Below are positions 20,494 through 51,976 of a stretch of DNA of 64,000 nucleotides, one piece after another. The stretch is from Trissonchulus latispiculum (taxonomy: Eukaryota > Nematoda > Enoplea > Enoplida > Ironidae). Both the position numbers and the translations under genes were made by a program. Numbering within the stretch: position 1 is the first letter of the stretch; each line of letters opens with the position of its first letter. The DNA lies in the NCBI GenBank assembly GCA_030248195.1, contig JASAND010023840.1, positions 62,001-126,000 on the forward strand. The letters are read 5' to 3'. A model generated the notes under the pieces. That model was not told the DNA's origin. It was given only the letters and a program-made list of their open reading frames with translations, and ran no database searches.

Positions 20494-20496
20494 ATC

Positions 20497-30600: not shown

Positions 30601-30938
30601 ACAGGGGGAAAGTGCTGCAAAGAACTTCTCCAGTTTCGTATAAAGTATCCCTGAACGGTCGTGCCCTTCGTCGACACCTGGATCAAATTCTGGGTCCAGA
30701 CCGCAGTTCAGTACCGATCAAGCAGCCTATGGCTGTCTGTGCCTTTGCCGAACCGTGATCCACCCGGAATGTTTCCGCCTGTCATACCGTTGCCTGTTTT
30801 CGATCGACAGGAGCCGGTTTCGCCAGCCCCTCGAAGATCAACTCGACCCAGACAGAGACCCTTGGCGTTTCATCCCGGACGTGACTTTAACGCTTTCCAG
30901 AGACCTCCTTAACTCTTTCTTAGGGGAGGAAAAGAAGA

Positions 30939-31204: not shown

Positions 31205-33810
31205 ATACGCCGGTCGCCAGTGAACAGCGTCAGCATCGTCAGCGTCAGCGTCAGCGTCAGCGTCAACGTCATCATCGTCAGCATCCTTCCCGTCAGACCG
31301 TATCCCGGTCGCCAGTGAACAGCGTCAGCATCGTCAGCGTCAGCGTCAGCGTCAGCGTCAACGTCATCATCGTCAGCATCCTTCCCGTCAGACCGTATCC
31401 CGGTCGCCAGTGAACAGCGTCAGCATCGTCAGCGTCAGCGTCAGCGTCATCATCGTCAGACCGTATCCCGGTCGTCAGCGAACAGCGTCAGCATCATCGT
31501 CAGCATCATCATCGACAGACCGTACCCCGGTCGTCAGCAATAGCGTCAGCGTCAGCGTCAACATCAGCACCATCATCGTCAGCGTTATCGCCGTCCTCAT
31601 CACCATCATCCTCACCAACCCCTCCTGTCTGTGGCTCTGCCTGGCCACTCAACATACTACAGAACTGATTGGACTATTGCCACAGCTACAGCCGAACTGT
31701 TTGGATTTCTGCCACAGATGATTCCTGGTCCCATCCTGCTCCGGCGCTGGTTACCATGATTTGGTAACCTACTCCCTATAGACAGTTGGGAGTAGCTACA
31801 AACTCTCTTAGCGCTACCCCCGATCCAAATCCTGATCTAAAATGTTAACAGTATCATAAAATGTATGCATAAAATGTATTGGTATTGTACTCTGCGGTTT
31901 CTTCCTTTTGCCTATAAAGGTTGGTAACTTTCATTGTGCTTGCTGACTGGTTAGCTGTGAATGTTTGTGGTTGTGCCCCCGGTTTGCTCCTTTCGTCCTA
32001 AAAGGTTCCTCGGATTGACTCCTTTGCTGACTAAAACCTAATCTGGCAAACTGTGACGATGGGTTTTCTGGTATGGCGTTTTGTCTGTTTTTGTCTGTAT
32101 ATTTTGTCCCCCTAGTGTAACTTTACCGGCTTTTTTTATTGTGTGAAGTGTGATGGGTAGGCTGAGTTTTGGCTATTTTTGTCTGTATATTTTGGGTTCC
32201 AATTGCCCTTTGTACAGATGCAGTTTCCTTTGTACAATTGCAATCTAGGATTTTTGGAGAGTATCTGAAAAATACTAACTATGCTTGTTTGTGTTGCTTA
32301 CTTGGTCGTTTGTGTAATTAACCTATTCGTAAACTAAGCTCGTAAACTAATCTAATTGTAATAATTTTGTAATTTTTTGTGTAATTAACCTATTCGTAAA
32401 CTAAGCTCGTAAACTACTCTAAGTGTAATAATTTTGTAATTTACCTATTCGTAAATTAATCTAATTGTAATAATTTAATAATCGAATTGTAATAATTTAA
32501 TACTCGTGTTGTGACCCCCTCCTCGGTAATTGTGCATGTCCATGGAATTTTCCTGTTTGTTTCGTTTGCTGGGGTCCCTTGCTGATTAATCTGGAAATTG
32601 AACGAAAAATATTTGTCAAACTACTTACCTGGGGAGTTTTTCGTCCCCAGGTAAGCCTCTTAGAAACCAATTAAGAAACGATAAGAATCGTCTTCCTTTC
32701 TAATCGGAAAAATTATGGCCGCTCGGTAAAAGACTTCCAACAGGCACCGCAAAATCCTGACTGACAGTTGCAGTCAGGACAAAGAAAGATAAGCTGGGGT
32801 GACTGACTCAGCCACAATTTTGTTTTTCCACCCAAGTCAGTCTTGGGGCAGACTCGAAAGAGAAAGGTTGTGTCTTAGTTTTACTATCTCTGGTTCTCTG
32901 GTCCGTGCTTGGACAGAGTGTATGTACGCCGTTTGCAGGCAAGATTGAGTCGATTTTTCTCGGGTTTCGCTGAACAGTTTGGTCCCCTACAATTACAGTT
33001 GTCATTATTTGATCGTCAGTCACCAGTCCCTTATTTGCAGTATTTTATATTCCAGTCAAGTTTGGATCCACCAAGGGTAAGAGTAAGTTGATGAGTCTCA
33101 GACAACGAGCCAACGGTCATTTTTAGCTTTGATCAAGTTTTATCGAATCTTGCATAGTCTCTCTAGTGGTTTGCCTTAACGTTATATCCTGAAGTTTTGC
33201 TTAAACCGATAAAAAGGGGAAATAGACTTGTTGCGTTAACTAATTTTTGTGCTGCTTATTGAAACTTCATTTCCAAATATTGATTCTTTTGTATTTGTAC
33301 CTTGTCACTCAATCAAACGTCATGTTCAATGTCTACTGACTCGTCTTGTATTTGGTATTACTGTATTACCTATGAATATTGTCTGAACAATTGTCGTGAA
33401 ACTTTAATATAATCAATCTTTCCAGTCTTGCTTTCAGTAGGGAATTATTGTCTAGATCTACTAGTTATTCATCTGATGAGCACAATTCTAACGCAGACAA
33501 CTAGTCAGTTTTACGAAGTTCAGATTAATATCCAGCTACATATTTTATTACTATAGTTCGATTTAAACGCGCAATAAACCGGTATCTCTAGTCGAAGACC
33601 CTGAAGAAGAGGTACCTACATTGGGAGATAACAACGATAACCATAGTGACTCGGTATAGGATTGTAATTGTGATAATTTGGGCTATTCTGTGGGTTGGAT
33701 GCTTAAACCCCTGGAAGGTTGAAAAGTGATTGCAAAACCAGTGTTCTAGAGTTTAAAGTGAAGAAAGTTCGACTAAAATTAACCCTCAGTGCTAGCCTAT
33801 TTTATTACAT
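31205..33810 (+). repeat. 5' LTR of the giant element (left end truncated)
   Basis: Matches the 3' LTR up to TTATTACAT (33810). It begins inside an array of 95-bp units (starts at 31211, 31306, 31401, then 31469) built of GTCAGC hexamers. A likely U3 TATA box is TATAAAGG at 31913-31920 and a poly(A) signal AATAAA is at 33573-33578. Open frames in the hexamer array (Val-Ser repeats) are not genes. Confidence 0.88.
31913..31920 (+). promoter_or_regulatory. Candidate LTR TATA box
   Basis: TATAAAGG in the 5' LTR, conserved at 50075-50082 in the 3' LTR. Position between the tandem array (U3) and the AATAAA suits a U3 promoter. Not tested. Confidence 0.4.
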
Positions 33811-34284
33811 GTGGAGCTCCCTCAGGCGAGGAAAAACGTGGGGTGATAATTTTCATTAGAGCTCTACAATTTGAAAAGATTTCAAATTTGTCACTTAAGT
33901 TTGAAAATTATCTGACCTCTTTTCCTCGGAAATCTCACGACCTTTTTCTATATTGTTTAAGCCCTCCCCCTGGATTACGAATTGTGTCTTTGTATCGTCG
34001 TAATTGTAATTAATCTTCATTTAATTTGTTATTTAAATTTTACATTACGTAGGCCTTAAACTTTAATAAATTTCATTATACGTACGGTTAGATAGTAAAC
34101 TTTCAAATTTCCTAGATTGGACCTTTTCTCTACGACCTTAATGGACTGATTTTCCGTGTTGAGATACTGCTATACAATATTTAAAGTTATCAATAGTTTT
34201 TGAAGGAGCACTACACTTTTCTTGAGTTTTCAAGTTGATTTTTTGATATCAATTTATTTTTGCTGAGGCGAACTTCGGGATAAG
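33811..34284 (+). other. Leader of the giant element
   Basis: Non-coding. TGGAGCTCCCTCAGGCG starts two or three bases after the LTR end and could be a primer-binding site (TGG start), but I cannot match it to a particular tRNA. Confidence 0.35.
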
Positions 34285-34521
34285 ATGCCGAATGAGACAG
34301 CTGAGCTTGGGCCGCCTGCGCAGCCAGGGCCCCGGGGAAACCAAAATAATCCCCCTAGCGTTAAGACACAAGTTTTGCAGAGATTGACAGACACGCTTTC
34401 CGACATTGTTGTTCCCTTCGGGGACCACGATCATTTCTATGATCACCCTGATAGTTCCTATCACTTGGTTGATATCGGTCTCGTCGACCATTCTGGTCAA
34501 AATTTCAAGTTTCAATTGTAA
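34285..34521 (+). pseudogene. Gag N-terminal remnant
   Basis: ATG-initiated frame beginning MPNETAELGPPAQPGPRG, a plausible start of a Gag protein. From 34407 the sequence is the inverted copy of 34671-34770, so the rest of this frame is an artefact of the rearrangement and ends at TAA 34521. A usual capsid domain is missing. The zinc knuckle lies in a different frame just downstream. Confidence 0.5.
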
Positions 34522-37500
34522 TAGGCCAGGGCATGTCCGTCGAGAATGCCGCCAACCTGGTGGAGGTGCCTATCGGCCTAATAATCAGGGTTCGGACCGA
34601 AACTTTCAGAGAAGGCCGGACGCAAATAGGAATTTTAGGAGTAATCAGAATTACCAAGGCCGACGAGAGGGAAATTTTGACCAGAATGGTCGACGAGACC
34701 GATATCAACCAAGTGATAGGAACTATCAGGGTGATCATAGAAATGATCGTGGTCCCCGAAGGGAACAACACCATGGAAATCAAAATTATGATCGCAGGGA
34801 TCGGGGTAGAGATTTTCCCCCGGAAATGAAGAGGGAATATGGGCCTAAGTTTGCGGTGTCTTGTTCCAAGACACAGGAAGAAGATCGACGCCATGAGGGC
34901 GGATATCGATCTGGGCGCTACTCTAGTGCCTCTGGTTCGGTCCATAGTGAGTATCGGGATGATCGCTACGAGGGTGAGCGATATTATTCTCCCCGTCGCA
35001 GAGGAGATTCTAGGTCTGACTTGTCCGGGCAATATTCGGTTCGCTCTGCGCGAAACATTTCTCGAGATTGCATGATGCATGCCAAGCGTTGTCTAGTCTC
35101 ACCGCATTTCCAACATAAAGTTTTGATGTGCCGACAGCCCTTGATCTGTACTTGTCGAGCACCACAGCCGTATGTACCTTATGAACGGCATGTAGTTAGA
35201 CCACCTAGTGCTAGCTCATTCACATCAACTGAGGAGGAACTCTTTGTACCTGTTCCTCGCAATTCTACTCGTATGCCTAGTGCCAGGCGGGTCCGCAAAG
35301 TTCATGAGCCCATTGTGGATACCAACACAGTTGCAGTTCAGTGCAGCCTTGAACCAACTGAGAATAGTGTAGAGGTTCAGGGTAGTGAGGAAAATAAGCC
35401 TAGCCTAGGCCAACTTTCCTCGGTAGTCATGTGCCTGCTGTGGGCCATGACTGTATTGGTTCGAAGTTTGAGAAAGGCCGCCGTACCCGCTGCTTGGGTT
35501 TTGTTGGCCTTTTTAGTGTCGAAAGCCAACGCACAGACGCAGGCTGACACCGATTCTTCGCGATTTCTAGCGGATGAGATAGCGAAAATTGGAACGCTGG
35601 TCTTACCCCGTTGGGGAGCAGTTTTGAGTCCCGCTGGGATAGGGGTCATTTCTCAGAAAACCGAATATCTAGCTTTGATAGTACAGTTGGCGGTGCCGCC
35701 AATGTCTCCTCAATGGAAGCCCCCCGAATGGGCTAATGAGGAAGACTGTATCGATTTAGCTACCGGAAAAACGAAGACTGACCAATATTGCGTTCGTATG
35801 ATTAATCAAAGTTGCCCACAGTTCGATTACTTAGAGCGCGACGTTGATGCTATTAAGTTAGAATATCGGAAATTATATTCAGGAGTGCTGAATACGCATT
35901 TTTACTCGAAGCTTCTATCTAGTTTGTGCCGATCTACGCCTGGGGTTTGTACGTCATATCCGACACCTGAGCAAACACATAGCCGACCAAAACGATTCAT
36001 CGAATTCCTGTTAGCTGGGGCTCTGGGATTAGGAGGTTTAGCGAATAGTTTGGCTAACACTTATCATATGGGACAGTTAGATTATCGAGTTTCTGCTGTT
36101 GAACATGGATTTAACGTTTTGCGAGAGGATCAACTTAAGATTACTGACTCAATTAAGAGAATAGTTCATGCTAATGAGCAGGTTTACGCTTTCTTACATC
36201 ACACCGTGCAGGATTTGACTACGCTGATTATTAGGGCTCGATGTTCAAACTTTTCCTATATGCGACAAATTTATATGCAACTTTTAGCACACATTTTTAC
36301 TTCCTCTTTGAGAGATGGTTTAAATTCTGTTATGAGAGCCGGACTGCATTCAGAAATTAATCCGAATTTGATAAATTTGCAAACGTTAAAAGGAATTATT
36401 CGAACTCATCCGTCATTACGGAATTCCTTGCTCAGCCAAGAGCCAAGTTTGATTTACCAATTTGGAAAAGTTTACCCGATCAAAATTGACTTCAATACCC
36501 TACGTTTCGGGTTCATGCTTGAAATTCCCGTTCCCCTGGAACAGGAGGTACGTCCACTTTACGCCATTCATAATGTTGGTTATAACTCTCGAGAAAAAGG
36601 AATTACAGCTTTGGCGCCTTTACCTGAGTATGCGCAGCGTTTAAACACTGGTGAAGTTCGCGAAATTGATGTTTCAGAATGTAAAACCGCGCCTGGATTA
36701 TGGTTTTGCCCGCCTAATGCGATTGTAACTAGCTTAAAAGCGAAATGTCTGCAAATCTTAATTAGCCGTCCTATTGATCATATGGGGAAGGAATTTGAAC
36801 ACTGTCGAGAATATATTCAAGTTAAAGTTTTAGATAATTCTACTATCTACCGCACTACACCAGCAGGAGTTTTAATTAGGACAAATTATACTGAGGTCAT
36901 TGTCGCTCGTTCTCCCTCGCTGAATCATGTAGCAGAAGGTGAGAGAGTACCAGTCCCTGCAACTGGAACACTTTGGTTTGAGCACGGACGCTATCTACAT
37001 TTAATCATAGGGAATACGATTCTAACCAGCACCTTAGGTGTAGCCAAAACTACCATAACCATGTCTGATCTACAGGAAATTATTGTTCCCGCCCCATTGG
37101 GACGGATCCCGTTGCATTTCACCGAACTCTCTACCGCCGCTTATGAAAACGAGCAAGCCAAAAACCTGATCCAAAGTCAGGTGAAGAATTATGTGCATCT
37201 GCCGCTAATACCCTTAGAGCTTAGGCATGGTTTAGTAATAGTGATTGTAATTGTTTTAGTAGGATGTTTTATAGTTTGGTGGATTACGCCCTGTGGCAGG
37301 AAATTTAGGGCCAGAATACGTAATCGACGAGGTCCCCCGCCGCGACCTGACCGTCCAACTATCTCAGTACCGGTAGAGAGCCAAAAGTTACAGGCATCTC
37401 TGTTTAGCGATGATGAAGAGGAACCTCCCCTAGAATTGGGAAACCTATCAGTTAAGAGTGATCCTATGCCGTACCGGCCACGAGAAAATTTAGAAACTTC

Positions 37501-38740
37501 TTTCGCAGAAAGAAATCGTAGATCAATGGCCAACCGCTGCCACGTGATGGCACACTATAAGCCTATATCCCGAGACACCTCCTATGCCTCGTCTATGTCC
37601 GACTACGGACATGACCATCTAGACCTGAGTTCTCGGCCTATGACTGATGACAGTCAGGAAGGTCAACCATCACCACTAATTGATTTAGATTTCGGAAATA
37701 CGAAAGGAAGAGGGGAAAGGATCGTGCGCTTTTCACGACAAGTGACTTTTGAGGGTTCTGAGGACGAGAATAGTGGGTCACCTGGCCATACACAGGCTGA
37801 CGCCGCCACGAGTCCTTTTAAGCGACATGTTAGGCCAACCAGTCCTGAATCTGACGGATCAGGACCTCAGACTCGCTCAGGAATTAGGAATTCCGGAAGA
37901 ACTGTAAATGCACATTCCGTTCTGATGGTACGAACTATACCGCTGATGATCAGTCTGCTTTTAGTAGGTAGGCCGGTGGATGCGCTTTTTGACACTGGCT
38001 CATTGGTATCTGTCGTCTCACAAAGTTTAGTCGAAAAGCTGGGTTTAACCATTACGCCGGTAGAAACTTTAGGTTCACTTCGGACTGCTAACGGTGGGAA
38101 ATGTCAAATTTTGGGGTATGTTAAAATACAGATTTTTTTCCGTGGAGCCGAAAGACGTCTACCCGTTCATAACTGGAAATTTTTAGTGGTCGAAAAACTT
38201 ACAACAAATTGTATCCTAGGATCTGACTTCATGGTAACCTTTCCTGGAGAAATTCCCTTAGATCTAGGGCAGCACACGATAACTTGGCCAGCGCTTGATG
38301 GCACCCGTGTGACCTTGCCTCTTACTATACCGGCTAAACAGAAAACGAGCAAAATTTTTCAGATAGGAATGACCAAACGTGAATGTTGTACTTGTCACCT
38401 GGAGGAGGAAGTTGTTTCCCTGCCTCCCAGGCCGTTCCCTATGATTTACGTAAATCTGAATGGGCAACTCGTGCAAACTTTATTGGATACTGGCGCAAAT
38501 TTGAGCTTAATGAATGAAAGTTTGGTTAGGCACTTAAAGTTGAAGATTTTACCTATGGATAGACCTTTACGTGCTGAGGGTGTAAACGGACAGGCTTTGA
38601 AATTTCGGGGTGCTGTCAAAGTTCCCGTTGAATTTTATGATACACCAGGAATTACTGTTGAGCACACTTTTCTAGTACCAAAAGGTTTGGCAGAAGACTG
38701 TTTAATTGGGACTGACTTTTTACACGAGCATGGGGGGTGA
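34406..38740 (+). CDS. Nucleocapsid-Env-tandem protease polyprotein (ORF1)
   Basis: A 1444-codon frame with no ATG at its 5' end because of the rearrangement. Residues about 38-48: partial zinc knuckle (C-x4-H-x4-C; the first Cys is absent at the junction). Residues 50-210: Asn/Arg/Gly/Asp-rich, nucleocapsid-like. About 342-377: hydrophobic signal/anchor ending in KANAQ. Env-like ectodomain with furin-type RPKR at 527-530 followed by a Gly/Ala/Leu-rich fusion-peptide-like segment. Transmembrane helix about 943-960 (LVIVIVIVLVGCFIVWW), then a 200-residue Ser/Arg-rich tail. First retropepsin: FDTGS, Asp 1196, then ILGSDF. Second retropepsin: LDTGA, Asp 1361, then LIGTDF. It stops at TGA 38738-38740. 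Family: Ty3/gypsy; Env of class I F-like type by layout only. Env upstream of protease is unusual. Confidence 0.82.
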   Translation: MLFPSGTTIISMITLIVPITWLISVSSTILVKISSFNCNRPGHVRRECRQPGGGAYRPNNQGSDRNFQRRPDANRNFRSNQNYQGRREGNFDQNGRRDRYQPSDRNYQGDHRNDRGPRREQHHGNQNYDRRDRGRDFPPEMKREYGPKFAVSCSKTQEEDRRHEGGYRSGRYSSASGSVHSEYRDDRYEGERYYSPRRRGDSRSDLSGQYSVRSARNISRDCMMHAKRCLVSPHFQHKVLMCRQPLICTCRAPQPYVPYERHVVRPPSASSFTSTEEELFVPVPRNSTRMPSARRVRKVHEPIVDTNTVAVQCSLEPTENSVEVQGSEENKPSLGQLSSVVMCLLWAMTVLVRSLRKAAVPAAWVLLAFLVSKANAQTQADTDSSRFLADEIAKIGTLVLPRWGAVLSPAGIGVISQKTEYLALIVQLAVPPMSPQWKPPEWANEEDCIDLATGKTKTDQYCVRMINQSCPQFDYLERDVDAIKLEYRKLYSGVLNTHFYSKLLSSLCRSTPGVCTSYPTPEQTHSRPKRFIEFLLAGALGLGGLANSLANTYHMGQLDYRVSAVEHGFNVLREDQLKITDSIKRIVHANEQVYAFLHHTVQDLTTLIIRARCSNFSYMRQIYMQLLAHIFTSSLRDGLNSVMRAGLHSEINPNLINLQTLKGIIRTHPSLRNSLLSQEPSLIYQFGKVYPIKIDFNTLRFGFMLEIPVPLEQEVRPLYAIHNVGYNSREKGITALAPLPEYAQRLNTGEVREIDVSECKTAPGLWFCPPNAIVTSLKAKCLQILISRPIDHMGKEFEHCREYIQVKVLDNSTIYRTTPAGVLIRTNYTEVIVARSPSLNHVAEGERVPVPATGTLWFEHGRYLHLIIGNTILTSTLGVAKTTITMSDLQEIIVPAPLGRIPLHFTELSTAAYENEQAKNLIQSQVKNYVHLPLIPLELRHGLVIVIVIVLVGCFIVWWITPCGRKFRARIRNRRGPPPRPDRPTISVPVESQKLQASLFSDDEEEPPLELGNLSVKSDPMPYRPRENLETSFAERNRRSMANRCHVMAHYKPISRDTSYASSMSDYGHDHLDLSSRPMTDDSQEGQPSPLIDLDFGNTKGRGERIVRFSRQVTFEGSEDENSGSPGHTQADAATSPFKRHVRPTSPESDGSGPQTRSGIRNSGRTVNAHSVLMVRTIPLMISLLLVGRPVDALFDTGSLVSVVSQSLVEKLGLTITPVETLGSLRTANGGKCQILGYVKIQIFFRGAERRLPVHNWKFLVVEKLTTNCILGSDFMVTFPGEIPLDLGQHTITWPALDGTRVTLPLTIPAKQKTSKIFQIGMTKRECCTCHLEEEVVSLPPRPFPMIYVNLNGQLVQTLLDTGANLSLMNESLVRHLKLKILPMDRPLRAEGVNGQALKFRGAVKVPVEFYDTPGITVEHTFLVPKGLAEDCLIGTDFLHEHGG
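34407..34770. repeat. Perfect 100-bp inverted repeat inside gag
   Basis: 34407-34506 is the exact reverse complement of 34671-34770; the loop is 164 bp. The right arm is in normal nucleocapsid coding context. The left arm is foreign to its frame and ends one codon before the second Cys of the zinc knuckle. It could reflect template switching in reverse transcription with loss of most of gag, or an assembly artefact. Confidence 0.9.
35429..37360 (+). other. Envelope-like fusion glycoprotein domain
   Basis: Part of ORF1. A signal-like hydrophobic segment (VLLAFLVSKANA) is followed by a Cys-containing surface part. The proteolytic site RPKR is next to a hydrophobic segment FIEFLLAGALGLGGLA. A long helical region with no Cys and then a Cys-containing membrane-proximal part follow. 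The membrane span is followed by a basic stop-transfer (CGRKFRARIRNRR). N-glycosylation sequons occur (for example NQS, NFS, NYT). The layout fits class I fusion proteins of errantiviruses and baculovirus F. To act as Env it would have to be released from the polyprotein or made from a spliced RNA; neither is shown. Confidence 0.72.
37920..38740 (+). other. Two tandem retropepsin domains
   Basis: The first has DALFDTGSLVSVVS (Asp 1196) and NCILGSDFMVTF; the second has TLLDTGANLSLMN (Asp 1361) and DCLIGTDFLHEHGG. Both keep the flap-to-helix spacing of about 80-95 residues. A short Cys-containing linker (CCTCHLEEE) joins them. Retropepsins act as homodimers of one-motif units, so two in one chain could pair inside the molecule. 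Confidence 0.82.
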
Positions 38741-41700
38741 TTTGGTCTTAAGTTTTGCGCAAGGGGGATTAAAATTGTCCAAGCCTGAGAGACCGCCCAT
38801 GATTGCAAAGTTAATCCATCACACGCCTGCCACACAGACTGCTTATAGGGTGTCAGCAATTAGGAAAGTTACAATTCCTGCTTATTCTGAAGTTACTGTG
38901 CCCGCCTTGGTGGAAAGTATGGAAAAATTGAAATATGACGGAATTTTCGAACCCTCCGAATTGAAATTTGAGAGCAATGACTCCACTATACAAGTCATGC
39001 CCGCTATGGTCAATCTGAGACAAAGGTTAATTCCGGTTTTGATGAAAAACAAGACTGGCCACCCGTTAACTGTTTATGAAAATTCTACATTGGGCAATGT
39101 CACCCCTAAAAATGAACTTAGGAAGGGACAAATTATGCGCGAGTACAAACCACTTGTCAATGAGCGAGGTGAGACAGTCTGTCTCAGAAATTCATTCAAG
39201 TCTAATTGTGCAAAGAACGTTAAGGGAAGCCGAGATTTCAATGTCAATATTTGCAAAATTAGTCACCCGTGTAAATTGGATGACTTCCCAGAGGCCATGC
39301 GGGAGATTTCTTTTGACAAGGAAAATTTAAGCGACAATGAAATTGGACGATTCCTCGGTCTTTTGAATGAGAACAAAATTTGTTTTTCCCAGCATCCGTT
39401 TGATATCGGAAAATGCACCATTTTCAAAGCACATATTAACACTAGTGAGTCAAAACCAATTTACGCAACGCCCTATCGGTTGCCCGTGCATCTGAGGCAA
39501 CCCTTATTAGAGGAACTGACAGAAATTCTAAAATACGGATTGATTAGGCCCTCCACAAGTCCTTGGAGCTCACCCATGATTTATGTCCCGAAACCGGGGG
39601 GAAAATTGCGATTATGCGTAGATTTCAGGAAAGTTAACAAAATTAGCGACCCAGATGTCTATCCGATTCCTCGAATAGATGATATTATGACCTCTTTAAA
39701 GGGAGCAAAATATTTTTCGACAATTGATTTAAGTAAAGGTTTCAACCAAATTGAATTGGACGATGAATCTAAGGCTAAAGCCAGTTTCAATACTTTTCAT
39801 GGCCAGTTTGAATATAATGTTTTACCTTTCGGGTTAAAATGTGCGCCAGGTAATTTTCAGCGTTGTATGGAGCGCATTTTAGGAGATCTGCAATGGAAAA
39901 AGTGCATTATTTATATCGACGATATTCTGATTTTTTCCAAAACCTTTGAGGAACATCTGGAAATTATGCAGGAAGTTTTTGATCGTTTACGTGCAGCTGA
40001 TTTAAAAATGAACCCCGGAAAGTGCCACTTTTTGAAAAAATCTGTGACCTATCTTGGGCACATCGTTTCGGAACAAGGTGTCGAGCCTCTGAAAGAGCGA
40101 ATTCAGGCTATTCATGATTTAGCTGTTCCTAAAAATATCAAGGATGTCGAAAGTTTTTTAGGAATGTGCGCGTACTATGCTAAATTTATCAAAGGATTCG
40201 CGCATCTAGCCGCACCACTTTACTCGCTAAAAAAGAAAGGAGTTCGCTTTGTCTGGAATAATACGCAGCAGCAATCTTTCGATCTTCTCAAGAAAAGTTT
40301 AGTAGAGGCACCCGTGCTCGCTCACCCCGACTTGGCTAAAGGATTCATTCTGCATACAGATGCTTCTGATTTAGGATTAGGAGCTGTTTTCTCTCAAGAA
40401 CAGGATGATGGTAAATACCATCCTGTCGCTTATGCAGCACGGTCACTCAAAAAATATGAGCGAAATTACTCTACGCATGATAAAGAATGTTTAGCTATGA
40501 AGTTCGGAATTGAACATTTTCGGCACTGCTTGTACGGGGGTCCGCCTTTTACGCTATTCACTGATCATTCTGCCTTGAGGTGGTTAATGAAACACCCTCC
40601 TCGAAATTCTCGTTTAGCTAGATGGCAGATGACCTTTTCAGAATATGATTTTGAAATTAAACATCGGAATAACCCACAACTTCGAAACTCTGATGGACTT
40701 TCACGAAATCCACTTTTTGCAGATATTGCTAAAGGTCTGCTTGGAGACGAAAAGGAGAATGATCGAAAATTTGTCCAAGTATATCAGGATGAAAGTGAAG
40801 AGCTAGTTGCACACATAAATTCAGTAGTTGTTCGTAATGGAGCCCAGAGGGCTCGAGATCCTAATATTTCGGTTGTCAACAAATTACGCGCTAAAAAGGG
40901 TATAACCACTGTTCGATCCAAAGTTTCGAAGATTTCTCAACCCTCTAGTTCTAGTAGCTCAGGTGAAGAGAAAGGCCAACCTTCGCCTGAAAAACAACCA
41001 AAATTGAAAGGTACTAGTAAAATTTCTAGATCGGATTCCGAAGAATCGGAACCAACGGTTAAAAGGCCGGTTAGACCCAGAATACTAGACTTGGACTATC
41101 CTAGTAAGGCATATGAGAAGTCAACAGAACCGCGATCCGAACGTCCGTCTTCGGATACTAGCCGACCTAAACGGAATGACCCGGCTACAGCCATGTTTAG
41201 CGAGGTTTTTCACCATGCCGTACGGGATAATTCTAATGTTTCTCTTAACCCTAAATCTTGGACAAAATTACAGGCTTTGCAACGAGAAGATTTACTTTTG
41301 AATGGCATTATAGATTACAAAGTTAATGGAAATCTACCTAGCAACTTTAATCTCGCAGTCAAAATTACTTCGCTAGCTGAGCAATGCGATATGCGCGATG
41401 ACGTCCTAGTGCATTTAGAGAAAGTACGAGATACCACCCTTGAAGTTTTAGCTGTACCCGAAAGTTTACGAGATGAGGCGCTTGCTGCGTGTCATGATAG
41501 TCCCTACGCCGCACACAGCGGGAGAAATAAGACCTGTTTTCGATTATCTCAACATTTTTGGTGGCCCGGAATGTATACGGACGTTAAACGTTGGGTAGAA
41601 TCCTGCCCGCGCTGTCAAAAACGAAAAGGCCCACCCAAAAATCCAAAAGCACCTTTACAGCATGCTCCTATGGCTGTAGAACCTTTTGAACGTGTTCACT

Positions 41701-43718
41701 GTGATCTCATGGATGTAAGCAAAGCTTCCAGAAGTGGTATGAAACATATTTTGAGTTTTGTCGACGCCTTTTCTAAATACGCCATTGCAATTCCTATTAA
41801 AAACAAGACAGCCTACACTGTGGCACAAAGTTTTCTCGAATTTGTTATTCTGCAATATGGCTCTCCAAAACTGCTTATTTCAGACCAAGGAAAGGAGTTT
41901 GTTGCGCTGCTAAATAAGGAAATTTGCTCGCAGGTGCAAACTCGAAAACTTGAGACTACTCGCTATCACCCCGCTGCGAATGGTCAAGTTGAACGTTGGC
42001 ATCGGACTTTACTTGATATGCTAGCTACAGTAACCGAAAACCACTTGGAATGGGATAATATGGTCCCTTATTGCCAATTTGCCTATAACACTTCCATAAT
42101 TTCGACTACGGGTGAAACTCCGCATTACCTTTTACATGCCTTGGATCCTGTCTTGCCTAGTGCAACTAATGTTTCTATACCTACTGATCGAAAATATTCT
42201 GGGTTTGATTATGTTAGAGAGGCGACTGAAGCATTGCAATTAGCCTGGTCTTTAGCTCGCGAAAAAATAGGAGCTGCTAGAAAAGTTCAGGATGCAAATT
42301 ATAATCAAAATGCAGTTGAGCCGAAATTTCAGGTTGGTGATTTGGTTATGATTAAAGCATCTAATGTCGCAAAAAGAGATCAAGTTTTCAAACTCTTAGA
42401 TAAAAAAATTGGACCATATCGTATAGAAAAAATTATTGGGTGTGTCGCAGAAGTTTATCCCGCAGGAAACCGACGCGCGAAACGGGTTAAAATTCAGTTT
42501 AATAATATGTATCCCTGTGTCGAACCTCGCGTAATTACAGCACCCGTTCACGAACATGATGATTCGAACTCCGATAAAGACGAATCTCCTGCTCCTAAGG
42601 TGCGGCACTCGAAAGCTGCCAAAGTACCGTTACAGCCGGAACCCCCTAAAACACCGCCTATTGCTGACTCTCCCTCTGAGAATGAGGATCCACGACCGCA
42701 AATTCGTAAACAGCCTAGTAGGAAATCTAAAGCTGTTCGTTCTGATACCAGTCCGGAAAAACCGGCTGTACAGCCTCGGAAACGAGTTCCACTCTCTCCT
42801 AAACAGAAGAGCGCTGCTCCCGTAAAAGTTGCTATTTCTTCTCAAGATTCCGCTTCGGATTCCGATAGCATTCCCCAATTCATGGGTGAAGAGTCTTTGA
42901 CACCGGAAAAGGACCCCATCGCCTTTAACCGTAGACATTTTTTTAATCCCGTTGACGCTCGTTGGCAACGTCACATGGCACTGCTACGCGGTCTACCGAT
43001 TGACCATATTTTGCCTGAAATGATGAGGCATACCCCACTCCATGAACCTTATGAGGTCATTAACATTATCGGAGACGGGAATTGCTATTATCGTGCTATC
43101 TCACTAGCCATTACTGGCTCTGAAGAGCACTGGTTACATATCAAGCGAGACTTATTCACATTTCTTGAGACATACGAGCATAAACGGCGTTTTCGTACAC
43201 TTTTTAACGATCTGGAGTCAGTCAAAAACAGACTTACCAAGACCGCCGAATATGCCACTGATGATGAATTCTTTTTGACTGCTGCCTGGCTACGCACGCC
43301 CATACAGTCATACTCAAAGTTTGGTCCTGTTTGGGCTTGGCAACAATTCTTGCCAGACGCTTTGCTCGGATCAAGCCAAAGTTATGAGAGAAATTCGCTC
43401 TATCTATACAATGAGAATAGCGATCACTTTATGGTAGTGCTATCCGTACAGACACCAGCCGGATTCCAATGGCCTACCAAGAACTCACCTAAAATCAAGA
43501 TTATGGAACTAGTTTCTAGTTCATCTTCAAACCAGTCTTCCCCTGCTGATGATCCTAAGAAATCGGATAGATCCTCTGCACCCAATGTAGAGAAACTTTT
43601 CTCAGAAAGCCCTTTGTTTTCTGGGCCAAGTCCCCTTTTTCAGAATCCCTTTAGGAGGTCCAAGCGAGGAAACGCCTCCTCTGACCCTACCTCGGGTCGG
43701 TACTCGTCTGAACAATAA
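38706..43718 (+). CDS. Pol: RT, RNase H, integrase and OTU-like protease (ORF2)
   Basis: Intact 1670-codon frame, entered from ORF1 by a +1 shift (codon 1 is TTG; TAA lies just upstream). RT: SPWSSPMIYVPKPGG, CVDFRKVNKI, YIDD at 403-406. RNase H: HTDASDLGLGAVF with Asp 552, then FTDHSAL. A Ser/Lys/Glu-rich linker at about 720-810. Integrase: HHCC finger (His 930, His 937, Cys 967, Cys 970) and catalytic triad Asp 1000, Asp 1060, Glu 1096 (35 residues between the last two). GPY module near 1236 (KKIGPYRIEKIIG). A basic disordered linker at 1280-1400. Then an OTU-like domain: GDGNCYYRAIS with Asp 1457 and Cys 1460, and SDHFMVVL with His 1574. A Ser-rich tail ends at TAA. Ty3/gypsy clade by RT/IN layout; the OTU addition is unusual. 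Confidence 0.88.
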   Translation: MGLTFYTSMGGDLVLSFAQGGLKLSKPERPPMIAKLIHHTPATQTAYRVSAIRKVTIPAYSEVTVPALVESMEKLKYDGIFEPSELKFESNDSTIQVMPAMVNLRQRLIPVLMKNKTGHPLTVYENSTLGNVTPKNELRKGQIMREYKPLVNERGETVCLRNSFKSNCAKNVKGSRDFNVNICKISHPCKLDDFPEAMREISFDKENLSDNEIGRFLGLLNENKICFSQHPFDIGKCTIFKAHINTSESKPIYATPYRLPVHLRQPLLEELTEILKYGLIRPSTSPWSSPMIYVPKPGGKLRLCVDFRKVNKISDPDVYPIPRIDDIMTSLKGAKYFSTIDLSKGFNQIELDDESKAKASFNTFHGQFEYNVLPFGLKCAPGNFQRCMERILGDLQWKKCIIYIDDILIFSKTFEEHLEIMQEVFDRLRAADLKMNPGKCHFLKKSVTYLGHIVSEQGVEPLKERIQAIHDLAVPKNIKDVESFLGMCAYYAKFIKGFAHLAAPLYSLKKKGVRFVWNNTQQQSFDLLKKSLVEAPVLAHPDLAKGFILHTDASDLGLGAVFSQEQDDGKYHPVAYAARSLKKYERNYSTHDKECLAMKFGIEHFRHCLYGGPPFTLFTDHSALRWLMKHPPRNSRLARWQMTFSEYDFEIKHRNNPQLRNSDGLSRNPLFADIAKGLLGDEKENDRKFVQVYQDESEELVAHINSVVVRNGAQRARDPNISVVNKLRAKKGITTVRSKVSKISQPSSSSSSGEEKGQPSPEKQPKLKGTSKISRSDSEESEPTVKRPVRPRILDLDYPSKAYEKSTEPRSERPSSDTSRPKRNDPATAMFSEVFHHAVRDNSNVSLNPKSWTKLQALQREDLLLNGIIDYKVNGNLPSNFNLAVKITSLAEQCDMRDDVLVHLEKVRDTTLEVLAVPESLRDEALAACHDSPYAAHSGRNKTCFRLSQHFWWPGMYTDVKRWVESCPRCQKRKGPPKNPKAPLQHAPMAVEPFERVHCDLMDVSKASRSGMKHILSFVDAFSKYAIAIPIKNKTAYTVAQSFLEFVILQYGSPKLLISDQGKEFVALLNKEICSQVQTRKLETTRYHPAANGQVERWHRTLLDMLATVTENHLEWDNMVPYCQFAYNTSIISTTGETPHYLLHALDPVLPSATNVSIPTDRKYSGFDYVREATEALQLAWSLAREKIGAARKVQDANYNQNAVEPKFQVGDLVMIKASNVAKRDQVFKLLDKKIGPYRIEKIIGCVAEVYPAGNRRAKRVKIQFNNMYPCVEPRVITAPVHEHDDSNSDKDESPAPKVRHSKAAKVPLQPEPPKTPPIADSPSENEDPRPQIRKQPSRKSKAVRSDTSPEKPAVQPRKRVPLSPKQKSAAPVKVAISSQDSASDSDSIPQFMGEESLTPEKDPIAFNRRHFFNPVDARWQRHMALLRGLPIDHILPEMMRHTPLHEPYEVINIIGDGNCYYRAISLAITGSEEHWLHIKRDLFTFLETYEHKRRFRTLFNDLESVKNRLTKTAEYATDDEFFLTAAWLRTPIQSYSKFGPVWAWQQFLPDALLGSSQSYERNSLYLYNENSDHFMVVLSVQTPAGFQWPTKNSPKIKIMELVSSSSSNQSSPADDPKKSDRSSAPNVEKLFSESPLFSGPSPLFQNPFRRSKRGNASSDPTSGRYSSEQ
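38729..38742 (+). promoter_or_regulatory. Candidate +1 frameshift site GGG-GGG-TGA-T
   Basis: ORF1 reads CAT GGG GGG TGA; ORF2 is open from 38706 in the +1 frame and reads through the same G run as GGG GGT GAT. A P-site GGG followed by TGA T resembles stop-assisted +1 shifting (antizyme uses UCC UGA U). An extra G in a G run by mutation or sequencing error would look the same. Confidence 0.45.
43026..43460 (+). other. OTU-like cysteine protease (deubiquitinase fold) domain
   Basis: C-terminal part of ORF2. The block GDGNC-x2-RA carries the expected Asp and Cys, and an NSDHF-M-V block carries the His, 114 residues later. The spacing and the order fit OTU family proteases, which cleave ubiquitin chains in hosts and process polyproteins in some viruses. 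The catalytic residues are present. The target is unknown. Confidence 0.78.
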
Positions 43719-44878: not shown

Positions 44879-47089
44879 ATGGCTCCAAAGTTGGTTGTAA
44901 CGTCAGTCGAATCGAACGAGAAAATTGAAGGTGTTGCTGATCCAGAGTTCCCCTTACCGTTAGATTGTCCTGAATCCTTAAGAGGTCCTCATCGTTGGAG
45001 TAGTGATTTGCCCGAAGTGTCAGTGTATTGCGCGATCATTTGATTTTTCGAAAATATTAAAAATCAAAAATCAAGAAACAACGCGTTGATTTTTGTTTTT
45101 TGTTTTTTGTTTTCTCTGTAAAAACAAAAAACAACAGCTAGTTATTTGTGTTTAGTTTTTCCAGCAAATAAACAAAAATCAAAAATCAAAAACCAAACTT
45201 TTTCTAAAGCTACCCGTTATTGAATTGAACTTGGATTCAAAAACAAAAATCAAGAAACAAGCGATTGATTTTTGTTTTTTGATTTCAAAACAAAAATCAA
45301 AAATCAAGAAACAAGCGCTTGATTTTTGTTTTTTGATTTCAAAACAAAAATCAAAAATCAAGAAACAAGCGTTTGATTTTTGTTATTTGATTTCAAACCA
45401 AAAATCAAAAATCAAGTAACAAGCGTTTGATTTTTTTGATTTTGTTTTTCAAACGTAAAATCAAAATTAAACTGCTCTCTTCAAGTTTAACGTTTATTTT
45501 TGTTTAAATAGTAATTAAATATTAATTAGTTAAATATTAAATGGTTAAATATTAATTAATTAAATAATAATTAATTAAATATTAATTAAATATTTAGTTT
45601 TTCTTGCGCAATTACCCCAGCCGTAACTTCTGATTTTTTGACCAATAACTTTGCAATTTTGAATGGGTGCATACTCGAGGTTAATAAATTCAAAAATTTA
45701 AAGATTTTAAAAAATTTCAAAAAAATTTAAAATTTTCGTTTGGCAAGGGGGAACAAGGGGAACTGAAACATTTTTTGGAAAACATTTGCTGAAAACCTGA
45801 ATACAGGGGTATCAGGGGCGCCGAGCACGAATCTGAACTTCGTTTTCCGATAAACCTTTTCGTTAGCTCAGAATGAGCTTATATACATCTTAAGCTTTAG
45901 CTCATATTAGGCTAATGAACAGCTTTATCGAAAAACGGATTTCGAATTCGTGCTCACCGCCCCTGAAACCCCCTGTTTTCAAGTTTTCAGCAAATTTTTT
46001 CAAAAAATTTTCAGTTCCCCTTGGTCCCCCTTGCCAAACAATACTTTAAAATTTTTAAAATTTTTTAAAATCTTTTAATTTTTAAATTTTTGAATTTATC
46101 AGCGTCCAGTATGCACACACAAAAATTGCAAAGTTATTGGTCAAAAAGTCAGAAGTTACGGCTGGGGGGAATTGCGCAAGAAAAACTAAATATTTAATTT
46201 ATTATTTAATTAATTAATATTTAACCAATTAATATTTAACTAATTAATATTTAATTACTATTTAAATAAAAATAAATGTTAAACTTGAAGAGAGCAGTTT
46301 AATTTTGATTTTACGTTTGAAAAACAAAAATCAAAAAACAAAAATCAAGCGCTTGTTTCTTGATTTTTGTTTTTGAATCCAAGTTCAATGCAATAACGGG
46401 TAGCTTTAGAAAAAGTTTGATTTTTGATTTTTGATTATTGTTTATTTGCTGGAAAAACTAAAAACAAATAACAAGCTGTTGTTTTTTGTTTTTACAGAGA
46501 AAACAAAAAACAAAAAACAAAAATCAACGCGTTGTTTCTTGATTTTTGATTTTTAATAGTTTCGAAAAATCAAATGATCGCGCAATACACTGACACCGAA
46601 GGTCTCAGAATGGAGCCTGGAATGATTGATATCTACACAGATCCCCGTAGAGCTGAGTTGTTTCGTCCTAATGTGCGTGTGCAGTTAGTGTCCCAGATTG
46701 CCCAAATTTGCACGTTCTTGTGCTTGTAATGTTTTTGGAGAGTGGGTTTAAGTTTTTATGGAGTCCCGTTCGTAGTCTTTCCATTGTCTGATGATGTGCG
46801 TTTGTCCCGTGATCCTCATAAATTGCGTCTGCTTGAGCTTGTTCCCTCGTTAGGAGGTGGAATGTTTCGTTGTCCTAACATTAGGTGTCAGTGTCCTAAA
46901 GTCGTTATTTTACATGAGCATGAGGATTGGTATTATGGTAACGGTGTGCAAGTGTTGCCTGCAGAGGCTAGGTTTTTGTTGAATAACATCCATCGTGTGT
47001 TTCCGTTGCATGTCCCTTGTGATGTCTTAGATTACTATATGCGTATGCTTGGTGAGTGTCCACTATTTCATCCTATCATCCTTAACTAA
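44879..47089 (+). pseudogene. Accessory ORF 1, interrupted by a palindromic element and a stop
   Basis: ATG at 44879 opens 46 codons up to the insertion (45018-46595). The frame is kept on the far side, from 46602, until TAA at 46727. It then continues to 47089 with LSFYGVPF, FRCPNIRCQCP and VILHEHEDW. Those blocks match accessory ORF 2 (LSYFGVPF, FRCPNRICL, IILHEIPNW), and the stop falls exactly between LC and CFW, which are joined by one more residue in ORF 2. The function is unknown; a Cys-rich, possibly zinc-binding protein. A splice-donor-like TTG|GTGAGT is at 47052. Confidence 0.65.
45018..46595. mobile_element. 1.58-kb palindromic foldback element in accessory ORF 1
   Basis: Ends TGTCAGTGTATTGCGCGATC in inverted copies, flanked by the 6-bp duplication CCGAAG (45012-45017 and 46596-46601). 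The whole element is a long inverted repeat centred near 45880. The outer arms are arrays of AAAATCAAAAATCAAGAAAC units and the inner arms have a TTAAATATTAATTA tract. No coding capacity. A 4-bp duplication (CGAA) with a longer terminal repeat is an alternative. Superfamily not assigned. Confidence 0.85.
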
Positions 47090-47281
47090 GTTCCTATTTC
47101 CTTAAGTCCATAAGTCCGAGTAAGATCCTTATCCCTTAGTTGTCATGATTCTTTAGTCCTTAGTTACAACCTTAGGTAGACATCAGAATAGAGTCAGAAG
47201 TAATACTGTGAAGTAATAGTAATAGTGTGAATGTTCGATATCTCTCCAAAGATCCTTATTTTCCTTTTGTTTTGTAGAATC

Positions 47282-48040
47282 ATGTCAAGTTACGTTGCCC
47301 GTTGGTTGGCCCAGTGTGATCTGTTGAGTGAGGAGAGTGATGACGATTATCATTCGGCAGCTGCATATCTGCCGTCGTCCTGGTCTTCTTCTTCTTCTTC
47401 GTCTTCTTCTTCTTCCTCCTCCTCTTCGCCGTCTTCCGGCATTGCGTGCTGGAGTCGTTCTTCTACCATCCTGCCGAAGGTCCTTCAGTTGAGATATGAT
47501 CCCGGTCCCCCGGAGAGCTGTTGTCCATCGTCCGCCCAGCGAGGTCCAATGAGAGTTGAAAGCCAATTGCCGCCGGAGCTGAAGATGCTCCACTACCGTG
47601 GTCAGCGAGATGTCATCTACTGTGCGCCAGGTGCCAATGATAAGTTCGTCCCCTTCCGCCCCCTCTGTGTGTTGAGTTCTGATGTGGTTGCGTGTTGCAC
47701 TCTGTTGTGTGTGAACTGTTTTTGGAAATTTAGTTTAAGTTATTTTGGAGTGCCTTTTCGTTTTGTTCCTGCACCTACTAAGTTCCAGTTTTATGATTTT
47801 CCCACTAAGTCTTCTCTGTTGAATTTAGTTCTTCCTAACCGTTCGCCTGCCTTCCGTTGCCCTAACAGGATCTGTTTGAGTTCTTCTACTATCATTTTGC
47901 ACGAGATCCCTAATTGGCGTTTGCATGGCCCGTTCACTATTCGTAACCGGCATCCCATTTTTGTTGAAACTTTGTTGGATTGTTTGCCTGGTTTGCATGA
48001 CCCTCCCATTCCGGAGGATTTTCTGAATGTTGACTTTTAA
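47282..48040 (+). CDS. Accessory ORF 2, intact
   Basis: Open from 47231 to the stop at 48040. I prefer the ATG at 47282 because the acceptor-like TTTTGTTTTGTAG lies just before it, suggesting a spliced RNA. About 252 residues: acidic N-terminus, a run of about 17 Ser, then a Cys-containing domain (CCTLLCVNCFW, LSYFGVPF, FRCPNRICL, IILHEIPNW). It is a paralog of accessory ORF 1. No known family recognised. Position after pol is where retroviral accessory genes lie. Confidence 0.72.
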   Translation: MSSYVARWLAQCDLLSEESDDDYHSAAAYLPSSWSSSSSSSSSSSSSSSPSSGIACWSRSSTILPKVLQLRYDPGPPESCCPSSAQRGPMRVESQLPPELKMLHYRGQRDVIYCAPGANDKFVPFRPLCVLSSDVVACCTLLCVNCFWKFSLSYFGVPFRFVPAPTKFQFYDFPTKSSLLNLVLPNRSPAFRCPNRICLSSSTIILHEIPNWRLHGPFTIRNRHPIFVETLLDCLPGLHDPPIPEDFLNVDF

Positions 48041-49224: not shown

Positions 49225-51976
49225 AGCCCGTCAGACCGTATCCCGGTCGCCAGTGATCAGCGTCCGCGTCAGCGTCAACGTCAGCATCGTCAGCATCCTT
49301 CCCGTCAGACCGTATCCCGGTCACCAGTGAACAGCGTCAGCATCGTCAGCGTCAGCGTCAGCATCAGCGTCAGCATCGTCAGCATCCTCAAAATCAGACC
49401 GTATCCCGGTCGTCAGCGTCAGCGTCAACGTCATCATCGTCAGCATCCTTCCCGTCAGACCGTATCCCGGTCGCCAGTGAACAGCGTCAGCATCGTCAGC
49501 GTCAGCGTCAGCGTCAGCGTCAACGTCATCATCGTCAGCATCCTTCCCGTCAGACCGTATCCCGGTCGCCAGTGAACAGCGTCAGCATCGTCAGCGTCAG
49601 CGTCAGCGTCATCATCGTCAGACCGTATCCCGGTCGTCAGCGAACAGCGTCAGCGTCATCGTCAGCATCAGCATCGACAGACCGTACCCCGGTCGTCAGC
49701 AACAGCGTCAACGTCAGCGTCAACATCAGCACCATCATCGTCAGCGTTATCGCCGTCCTCATCACCATCATCCTCACCAACCCCTCCTGTCTGTGGCTCT
49801 GCCTGGCCACTCAACATACTACAGAACTGATTGGACTATTGCCACAGCTACAGCCGAACTGTTTGGATTTCTGCCACAGATGATTCCTGGTCCCATCCTG
49901 CTCCGGCGCTGGTTACCATGATTTGGTAACCTACTCCCTATAGACAGTTGGGAGTAGCTACAAACTCTCTTAGCGCTACCCCCGATCCAAATCCTGATCT
50001 AAAATGTTAACAGTATCATAAAATGTATGCATAAAATGTATTGGTATTGTACTCTGCGGTTTCTTCCTTTTGCCTATAAAGGTTGGTAACTTTCATTGTG
50101 CTTGCTGACTGGTTAGCTGTGAATGTTTGTGGTTGTGCCCCCGGTTTGCTCCTTTCGTCCTAAAAGGTTCCTCGGATTGACTCCTTTGGCTGACTAAAAC
50201 CTAATCTGGCAAACTGTGACGATGGGTTTTCTGGTATGGCGTTTTGTCTGTTTTTGTCTGTATATTTTGTCCCCCTAGTGTAACTTTACCGGCTTTTTTA
50301 TTGTGTGAAGTGTGATGGGTAGGCTGAGTTTTGGCTATTTTTGTCTGTATATTTTGGGTTCCAATTGCCCTTTGTACAGATGCAGTTTCCTTTGTACAAT
50401 TGCAATCTAGGATTTTTGGAGAGTATCTGAAAAATACTAACTATGCTTGTTTGTGTTGCTTACTTGGTCGTTTGTGTAATTAACCTATTCGTAAACTAAG
50501 CTCGTAAACTAATCTAATTGTAATAATTTTGTAATTTTTTGTGTAATTAACCTATTCGTAAACTAAGCTCGTAAACTACTCTAAGTGTAATAATTTTGTA
50601 ATTTACCTATTCGTAAATTAATCTAATTGTAATAATTTAATAATCGAATTGTAATAATTTAATACTCGTGTTGTGACCCCCTCCTCGGTAATTGTGCATG
50701 TCCATGGAATTTTCCTGTTTGTTTCGTTTGCTGGGGTCCCTTGCTGATTAATCTGGAAATTGAACGAAAAATATTTGTCAAACTACTTACCTGGGGAGTT
50801 TTTCGTCCCCAGGTAAGCCTCTTAGAAACCAATTAAGAAACGATAAGAATCGTCTTCCTTTCTAATCGGAAAAATTATGGCCGCTCGGTAAAAGACTTCC
50901 AACAGGCACCGCAAAATCCTGACTGACAGTTGCAGTCAGGACAAAGAAAGATAAGCTGGGGTGACTGACTCAGCCACAATTTTGTTTTTCCACCCAAGTC
51001 AGTCTTGGGGCAGACTCGAAAGAGAAAGGTTGTGTCTTAGTTTTACTATCTCTGGTTCTCTGGTCCGTGCTTGGACAGAGTGTATGTACGCCGTTTGCAG
51101 GCAAGATTGAGTCGATTTTTCTCGGGTTTCGCTGAACAGTTTGGTCCCCTACAATTACAGTTGTGAGCCCCTATTTGATCGTCAGTCACCAGTCCCTTAT
51201 TTGCAGTATTTTATATTCCAGTCAAGTTTGGATCCACCAAGGGTAAGAGTAAGTTGATGAGTCTCAGACAACGAGCCAACGGTCATTTTTAGCTTTGATC
51301 AAGTTTTATCGAATCTTGCATAGTCTCTCTAGTGGTTTGCCTTAACGTTATATCCTGAAGTTTTGCTTAAACCGATAAAAAGGGGAAATAGACTTGTTGC
51401 GTTAACTAATTTTTGTGCTGCTTATTGAAACTTCATTTCCAAATATTGATTCTTTTGTATTTGTACCTTGTCACTCAATCAAACGTCATGTTCAATGTCT
51501 ACTGACTCGTCTTGTATTTGGTATTACTGTATTACCTATGAATATTGTCTGAACAATTGTCGTGAAACTTTAATATAATCAATCTTTCCAGTCTTGCTTT
51601 CAGTAGGGAATTATTGTCTAGATCTACTAGTTATTCATCTGATGAGCACAATTCTAACGCAGACAACTAGTCAGTTTTACGAAGTTCAGATTAATATCCA
51701 GCTACATATTTTATTACTATAGTTCGATTTAAACGCGCAATAAACCGGTATCTCTAGTCGAAGACCCTGAAGAAGAGGTACCTACATTGGGAGATAACAA
51801 CGATAACCATAGTGACTCGGTATAGGATTGTAATTGTGATAATTTGGGCTATTCTGTGGGTTGGATGCTTAAACCCCTGGAAGGTTGAAAAGTGATTGCA
51901 AAACCAGTGTTCTAGAGTTTAAAGTGAAGAAAGTTCGACTAAAATTAACCCTCAGTGCTAGCCTATTTTATTACAT
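49225..51976 (+). repeat. 3' LTR of the giant element
   Basis: Starts with the GTCAGC-hexamer array (CCGGTCG unit starts at 49244, 49318, 49407, 49468, 49563 and 49631), with more units than the 5' copy. From 49468 it is collinear with 31306 onward to the end at 51976 (LTR...TTACAT). Visible differences: CTTTGGCTGAC, a T-run length change and GTGAGCCCC in place of GTCATT near 51163. AATAAA at 51739-51744. Confidence 0.9.

What the first reader, a model, noticed from the sequence alone, without database searches (positions are those of the whole stretch)
31205..51976. Giant retrovirus-like element with the order NC-Env-PR-PR-RT-RH-IN-OTU-accessory
Env-like sequence (signal segment, RPKR, fusion-like segment, membrane span) sits in the same frame between the nucleocapsid and the protease, upstream of pol. 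In retroviruses and errantiviruses env is normally 3' of pol. Combined with doubled proteases, an OTU domain and two accessory paralogs, this looks like a separate lineage of Ty3/gypsy-related virus-like elements. LTRs are near identical, so the lineage was active recently.
Basis: partly seen in the sequence, partly recalled or inferred. Interest (0 to 1): 0.92.

Follow-up and report, generated by a model that had tools for sequence, protein, structure and literature searches.

The report
Giant gypsy-type element with mid-polyprotein Env
This is a large, recently inserted but damaged virus-like jumping element whose envelope-like protein sits inside the main polyprotein, before the enzymes, an arrangement that has been reported for giant planarian elements called Burro.

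Summary
About 20.8 kb is bounded by near-identical 2.6-kb LTRs. One 1450-codon frame holds a zinc-knuckle remnant, an Env-like module (signal segment, RPKR, hydrophobic segment, membrane span) and two aspartic proteases. An overlapping frame holds RT, RNase H, integrase and an OTU-like domain. Two accessory paralogs follow. RT-RH matches Ty3 best among solved structures, so it is Metaviridae-like.

Three corrections. (1) Env in frame between gag and pol has a precedent: Arkhipova & Yushenova 2019 (PMC6431247) reported it for planarian Burro elements as the first case. (2) This copy is damaged: gag is lost after about 40 codons, no capsid is left, and a 100-nt inverted copy of the NC region sits at the break; a nested 1.58-kb inverted-repeat element and an in-frame stop break accessory 1. 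(3) Env homology is not proven: the best PDB match is a fusion protein F0 at E 0.13-0.2, chance level, though colinear.

Best reading: a new variant of the Burro-like plan, possibly made as one membrane-threading polyprotein. Other copies could not be sought: the own-genome search did not complete and homolog search was off. Lineage status is untested.

The parts
31210..33810 (+). 5' LTR (its start lies inside a CGTCAG tandem-repeat block, so the exact first base is uncertain)
34285..34406 (+). probable start of gag: ATG and about 40 codons, then the reading is lost
34407..34506 (-). 100-nt exact inverted copy of 34671-34770 (NC coding region) at the gag break
34511..35374 (+). nucleocapsid remnant (CCHC knuckle without its first Cys, basic tail) and linker to Env; same frame as Env
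35405..35533 (+). double hydrophobic stretch ending SKANA: signal-peptide-like start of Env
35534..35995 (+). SU-like part of Env, ending in the furin-type motif RPKR (35984-35995)
35996..37285 (+). TM-like part of Env: hydrophobic fusion-like segment, Cys-rich region, membrane span 37229-37285
37931..38233 (+). aspartic protease 1 (DTG)
38429..38737 (+). aspartic protease 2 (DTG); its last strand appears to continue in the ORF2 frame
38706..43718 (+). ORF2, +1 relative to ORF1, overlap 35 nt
39585..40067 (+). reverse transcriptase (YIDD)
40329..40646 (+). RNase H
41454..42185 (+). integrase: H2C2 zinc domain and rve core with D, D, E (residues assigned by eye)
43071..43445 (+). OTU-like cysteine protease domain (GDGNCYYRA ... 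SDHF)
45017..46596 (.). nested 1.58-kb inverted-repeat DNA element (outer arms 97%), CGAA at both flanks
46730..47089 (+). accessory 1, C-terminal part; pieces further upstream lie on either side of the nested element
47231..48040 (+). accessory 2, paralog of accessory 1
49372..51976 (+). 3' LTR (start given in register with the 5' LTR; repeats continue upstream)

Best explanation
It is a damaged, recently inserted copy of a giant Ty3/gypsy-type (Metaviridae-like) endogenous retrovirus-like element built on the plan Gag-Env-PR-PR / RT-RH-IN-OTU plus 3' accessory genes. Shown: the order, the continuous frame from NC to PR2, the duplicated PR, the LTRs, the damage. Inferred: an intact copy makes one Gag-Env-PR polyprotein whose Env part enters the secretory pathway at an internal signal and leaves it at one membrane span, so that Gag and PR stay in the cytosol, much as flaviviruses order capsid, envelope and enzymes (recalled comparison); a +1 frame change then gives the pol product; the OTU part removes ubiquitin-like tags to protect the particle or blunt host defence. 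Env would allow passage between cells.
For: 1450-codon frame with no stop. Env codon usage resembles the RT-RH/IN reference (r 0.82 in frame, against 0.13 and 0.61 in the other two frames), which suggests that Env and pol have long been together. RT-RH best PDB match is Ty3 Gag-Pol, E 1.1e-99. PR1/PR2 homologous, both with DTG. Same plan reported for Burro: Gag ... Env - PR - RT in one frame. Signal-like segment, RPKR plus hydrophobic segment, and membrane span in the right order. LTRs 99.5% alike.
Against: Only one copy seen, and it is rearranged just upstream of NC-Env. No significant homology of Env to any fusion protein: the F0 match has E 0.13-0.2, and of three other pieces tried one reached E 0.1 (accessory 1 to adenovirus LH3), one 0.42 (tail) and one 1.3 (accessory 2). 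OTU below the Pfam cut-off. PR2 seems split between the frames, which fits a frameshift mutation as well as a programmed shift. PR1PR2 codon usage hardly favours its own frame (0.53, -0.04, 0.50); tail (0.25) and OTU region (0.48) are weak to moderate. Single-sequence models were too poor to use (mean pLDDT 36.8 and 36.0).
Confidence: 0.55

Rival explanations
1. Same element, but Env is not made within the polyprotein: splicing joins gag to protease-pol (Env is an intron) and a second message makes Env from an internal ATG.
For: The signal-like segment has nearby Met codons. Retroviruses use a spliced env message (established knowledge). Cer1 of C. elegans makes CERV from spliced RNA (PMC10309623, passages). 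No splice-site analysis was run here.
Against: The frame is open all the way through NC, linker, Env and tail, which spliced genes need not keep; Burro has the same in-frame plan.
Confidence: 0.25
2. The order is a product of local rearrangement in this copy: the break that removed capsid also brought NC next to Env.
For: A clear break with a 100-nt exact inverted copy lies at 34407-34506, right before the zinc knuckle.
Against: The inverted copy's source (34671-34770) lies in the NC frame that runs on into Env without a stop. Env also runs in frame into PR1, and codon usage of Env resembles that of pol. Burro shows the same order.
Confidence: 0.1
3. The Env-like part is a membrane protein of another kind, such as a captured host surface protein.
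For: No significant match to a fusion protein in Pfam or PDB; PHROGs, a phage library, gave nothing either.
Against: RPKR directly followed by a hydrophobic segment, a Cys-rich region and one membrane span; for the part after RPKR the single PDB match up to E 10 is F0, aligned from the 155th residue after RPKR with residue 260 of F0, ECKTAPGLWFCP against ECIEAPSSYICP.
Confidence: 0.1

Closest known systems
Burro (GYPSM1) giant gypsy-like LTR elements of planarians (Arkhipova & Yushenova 2019, PMC6431247: passages and the whole of section 7 seen; the original Grohme 2018 paper not held)
   Same: Giant LTR element of gypsy type; Gag with CCHC; Env with fusion-protein likeness in frame between gag and PR-RT-RH-IN; extra domains tied to ubiquitin or cell-death control; accessory ORFs.
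   Different: Here total 20.8 kb rather than over 30 kb; no MATH, BIR, ankyrin or BCL2 match found; two proteases; OTU-like domain after integrase; ORF1 ends before RT and a +1 frame change follows. Sequence relation to Burro could not be tested.
Errantivirus / gypsy of insects (ICTV Metaviridae profile PMC7879559, whole text seen)
   Same: Ty3-type pol, LTRs, Env with RXXR-type site (recalled for gypsy).
   Different: The profile puts Env of Metaviridae downstream of integrase; here it is upstream of protease.
TelKA elements of bdelloid rotifers (PMC5408684, passages)
   Same: LTR element with a class I paramyxovirus-like fusion protein.
   Different: There Env is the ORF after pol; OTU does not occur in the text (0 occurrences).
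Cer1 of C. elegans (PMC10309623, passages)
   Same: Gypsy/Ty3 type; no stop between gag and pol; an extra protein from spliced RNA.
   Different: No Env within the Gag-Pol frame described in the passages seen.

Membership tests
Metaviridae (Ty3/gypsy) | Pol order PR-RT-RH-IN with Ty3-like RT | tested here: met
   order met; Ty3 the best PDB match, E 1.1e-99. No tree built.
Metaviridae (Ty3/gypsy) | LTRs at both ends | tested here: met
Metaviridae (Ty3/gypsy) | Gag with capsid and nucleocapsid | tested here: inconclusive
   Only a probable gag start and a CCHC without its first Cys are left; no capsid sequence in between
Metaviridae (Ty3/gypsy) | Env, where present, downstream of integrase | tested here: not met
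   Env-like region 35405-37285 lies upstream of both proteases; rule as in PMC7879559. Burro already breaks this rule.
Metaviridae (Ty3/gypsy) | PBS and polypurine tract | tested here: inconclusive
   TGG follows the 5' LTR end closely, no tRNA match tested; purine runs seen upstream of the 3' LTR but its start is unclear
Burro-like elements | Env in frame between gag and PR | tested here: met
   Env identity itself rests on layout
Burro-like elements | MATH, BIR, ankyrin or BCL2 domains in ORF1 | tested here: not met
   None among Pfam matches of ORF1, ORF2 and accessory ORFs; sequence lost with gag cannot be judged
Burro-like elements | Sequence kinship of RT/IN with Burro | not testable with these tools
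   No Burro sequence held; homolog search off
Errantivirus | Env as separate gene 3' of pol | tested here: not met
   By eye, none of the 28 ORFs of 60 aa or more listed for 43600-49500 has the Env layout
Class I viral fusion proteins | Significant homology or fold match | tested here: inconclusive
   F0 at E 0.13-0.2 only; model unusable
OTU cysteine proteases | Pfam score at or above cut-off with catalytic Cys and His | tested here: inconclusive
   19.7 and 22.9 bits against 23.3; best PDB matches are VCPIP1 (E 0.015) and viral polymerase OTU-type entries (E 0.03-0.08); DGNC and SDHF motifs present

The most novel reading that the evidence does not exclude
The element belongs to a lineage, distinct from Burro, of enveloped Ty3-type viruses that make Gag, Env and enzymes as one membrane-threading polyprotein with a doubled protease, one of which is completed only after the frame change, and with a deubiquitinase-like domain on the pol end.
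Probability: 0.25. Interest if true: 0.8.

Novelty: new variant of a known kind. Interest (0 to 1): 0.5.

Why it matters
A second, differently equipped element with Env inside the Gag-Pol polyprotein would show that the planarian Burro plan is not a one-off, and would raise a testable question: can an LTR retrovirus make Gag, Env and enzymes in one chain that crosses the membrane twice. The doubled protease and OTU-like domain add a possible link to host ubiquitin control.

Tried and rejected
Own-genome search for other copies: the same request (Env piece) sent (15 calls), never answered. Relatives: ORF2 in IMG/VR (6 pattern stretches, 0 confirmed), Env in IMG/VR (5 stretches, 0 confirmed), ORF2 in prokaryote genome contigs (6 stretches, 0 confirmed); Env was not scanned in prokaryote contigs. 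Homologous proteins: switched off. RT and IN trees: not built, no reference set of gypsy elements at hand; the only placement is the PDB ranking (best 60 of 218 shown). Structure models of Env (599 aa) and the OTU region (177 aa), single sequence: mean pLDDT 36.0 and 36.8, not used; no fold search run. Accessory proteins: no Pfam match and no PDB match better than E 0.1. Host: of 10 flanking ORFs scanned with Pfam, 1 is an integrase of a neighbouring element and none of the other 9 reached a cut-off, so no host gene was named; no tRNA, no Rfam family at gathering score. Literature: OTU in gypsy elements, (26 papers with at least 4 of 5 terms; 'OTU domain' 0 times in each of the 20 listed; 0 papers); Env between gag and pol, (7 papers; 2; 0); other listings. 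PMC9040795, PMC13172572 and PMC11410931 were seen as passages and gave no further precedent. Chary & Hayashi 2025 on envelope-carrying retrotransposons of metazoans, seen only as a citation, is not held, nor is Grohme 2018, so precedents there cannot be excluded.
Full report
What is there. The window holds a direct repeat of about 2.6 kb at 31210-33810 and 49372-51976. The aligned parts 31249-33810 and 49411-51976 are 99.5% identical over 2567 columns; outside the tandem-repeat block there are 2 mismatches and 6 gap columns against 2236 compared positions. The LTR start lies in a CGTCAG tandem-repeat block, the repeats run on upstream of the 3' LTR, and I saw no target-site duplication next to the chosen ends. 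Either the 5' LTR is shortened or the ends are blurred by repeat changes.

ORF1 (34388-38740, stop to stop, 1450 codons). In order: a CCHC remnant (Pfam 20.0 bits against a cut-off of 20.8, profile positions 4-18 of 18), a basic linker, a double hydrophobic stretch ending SKANA, an SU-like part, RPKR followed at once by a hydrophobic segment, a Cys-rich region, one strong membrane span (Kyte-Doolittle 3.05, the highest in the ORF), a hydrophilic tail, and two aspartic proteases with DTG. The proteases are 34% identical over 101 residues (E 2e-13), so they are a duplication. Mononucleotide-shuffled ORF1 sequence gave longest frames of mean 103 and at most 202 codons in 300 trials.

ORF2 (38706-43718, 1670 codons) overlaps ORF1 by 35 nt in the +1 relation. 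It holds RT, RNase H, H2C2 and the rve integrase core, and an OTU-like stretch with DGNC and SDHF motifs. The OTU match is below Pfam's cut-off (19.7 bits in the whole ORF, 22.9 in the piece, cut-off 23.3); the PDB list for the piece is headed by VCPIP1 (E 0.015) and OTU-type viral polymerase entries. RT-RH matches Ty3 Gag-Pol best among PDB chains (7q5b, E 1.1e-99), then an RT/RNase H entry (4ol8; Ty3 by recall), an 'Enzymatic polyprotein' entry (8r0s; a caulimovirus by recall) and retroviral RTs. What looks like the last strand of PR2 continues in the ORF2 frame (my reading), so either a programmed +1 shift completes PR2 or a frameshift mutation split it; one copy cannot tell.

Damage. A probable gag start (ATG at 34285, about 40 codons) runs into a 100-nt exact inverted copy of 34671-34770, after which the sequence resumes inside the zinc knuckle. 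No room is left for a capsid, and the first cysteine of the knuckle is missing; that both were once there is inferred. Since the arms are still identical, the event is probably young. Accessory 1 is split by a 1.58-kb inverted-repeat element (45017-46596, outer arms 97%) flanked by CGAA on both sides, and has an in-frame stop before CFWRVG. Three separate pieces match accessory 2 (47231-48040) in the same order: one before the nested element (accessory 2 residues 98-114, E 0.003), one between it and the stop (129-161, E 0.008), and one after the stop (163-229, 40% identity, E 1e-14); the first two are weak and were compared with this one protein only. The copy is thus defective, and its 20.8-kb span includes the nested element.

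Is the order real or made by the rearrangement? The source of the inverted copy (34671-34770) lies in the NC frame that runs without a stop into the Env-like part, so NC-Env contiguity very probably preceded the break. Synonymous codon usage was compared with a reference made from RT-RH and IN: Env 0.82 in its own frame (0.13 and 0.61 in the others); NC plus linker 0.51, -0.33, -0.19; tail 0.25, -0.12, -0.29; PR1PR2 0.53, -0.04, 0.50; RH-IN linker 0.67, -0.34, 0.29; OTU region 0.48, -0.15, 0.19 (RT-RH at 0.89 and IN at 0.91 are part of the reference). PR1PR2 hardly separates two of the frames. On balance Env looks like an old part of the coding region.

Is it Env? The layout fits a class I fusion protein. 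Sequence does not prove it: Pfam gave nothing for the whole piece and only unrelated sub-threshold matches for its parts. PDB gave, for the whole piece, an F0 chain (8v5a, E 0.13) and a WD-repeat protein (E 1.3), and for the part after RPKR the same F0 alone (E 0.2). The alignment is colinear with the cleavage site (position of that site in F0 recalled) and keeps a Cys-rich motif, but as a yardstick three other pieces of the element reached E 1.3, 0.1 and 0.42 to unrelated proteins, so such E-values arise by chance. The single-sequence model is unusable (mean pLDDT 36.0).

Comparison with what is known. The ICTV profile puts Env of Metaviridae downstream of integrase (PMC7879559). What I did not find described is the combination of Env in that place with a doubled protease and an OTU-like domain after integrase (searches; open-access library only, and two directly relevant papers not held). 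Whether this element descends from Burro cannot be tested here, as no Burro sequence or host genome was reachable; the host itself is not identified.

How it may work. Inferred: with gag intact, translation would give Gag-Env-PR; the internal signal would thread the Env part into the secretory route, RPKR would be cut by a furin-type protease, and the span would return the chain to the cytosol, leaving Gag and PR on the same side of the membrane. PR could then free Gag and pol. The +1 frame change would set the ratio to pol. The OTU part would remove ubiquitin-like tags. None of these steps was tested. The strongest rival is that splicing separates Env from Gag-PR. Both are decided by RNA reads and by other copies.

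Verdict. A real, giant, Ty3-type element with an Env-like region in the unusual place; a defective copy; a new variant of a plan already reported for Burro; lineage status untested.

Noticed in passing
14867-23664: Second LTR element on the minus strand: LTR-like repeat pieces between 14867-15612 and 22919-23664 (90-97% identical), with PR (18182-19294) and RT (16922-18037) frames; broken into several frames.
   Followed up: partly
27282-30758: Third gypsy-type element directly upstream of the giant one: RT at 27902-29074, RH-like frame (by eye) and integrase (29805-30365), frames interrupted.
   Followed up: partly
13254-14246: Copia-type reverse transcriptase fragment (RVT_2, E 3e-56).
   Followed up: no
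25147-25461 and 26123-26355: Two arrays of a 41-nt unit whose consensus holds four TTTCAG hexamers.
   Followed up: no
1504-1950: Minus-strand frame with an 11-residue repeat of the type KDAAKDGADQG, resembling LEA-like repeats (recalled likeness).
   Followed up: no
3618-3968 and 6563-6961: Two minus-strand frames with a similar C-terminal stretch (FRLKKEYIKKVEITSS / FRFRQETVESVTVTSS), possibly exons of related host genes; similarity seen by eye.
   Followed up: no
38706-39450: Stretch between PR2 and RT resembles the dUTPase-like pre-RT region of gypsy elements (recalled); no Pfam dUTPase match.
   Followed up: no
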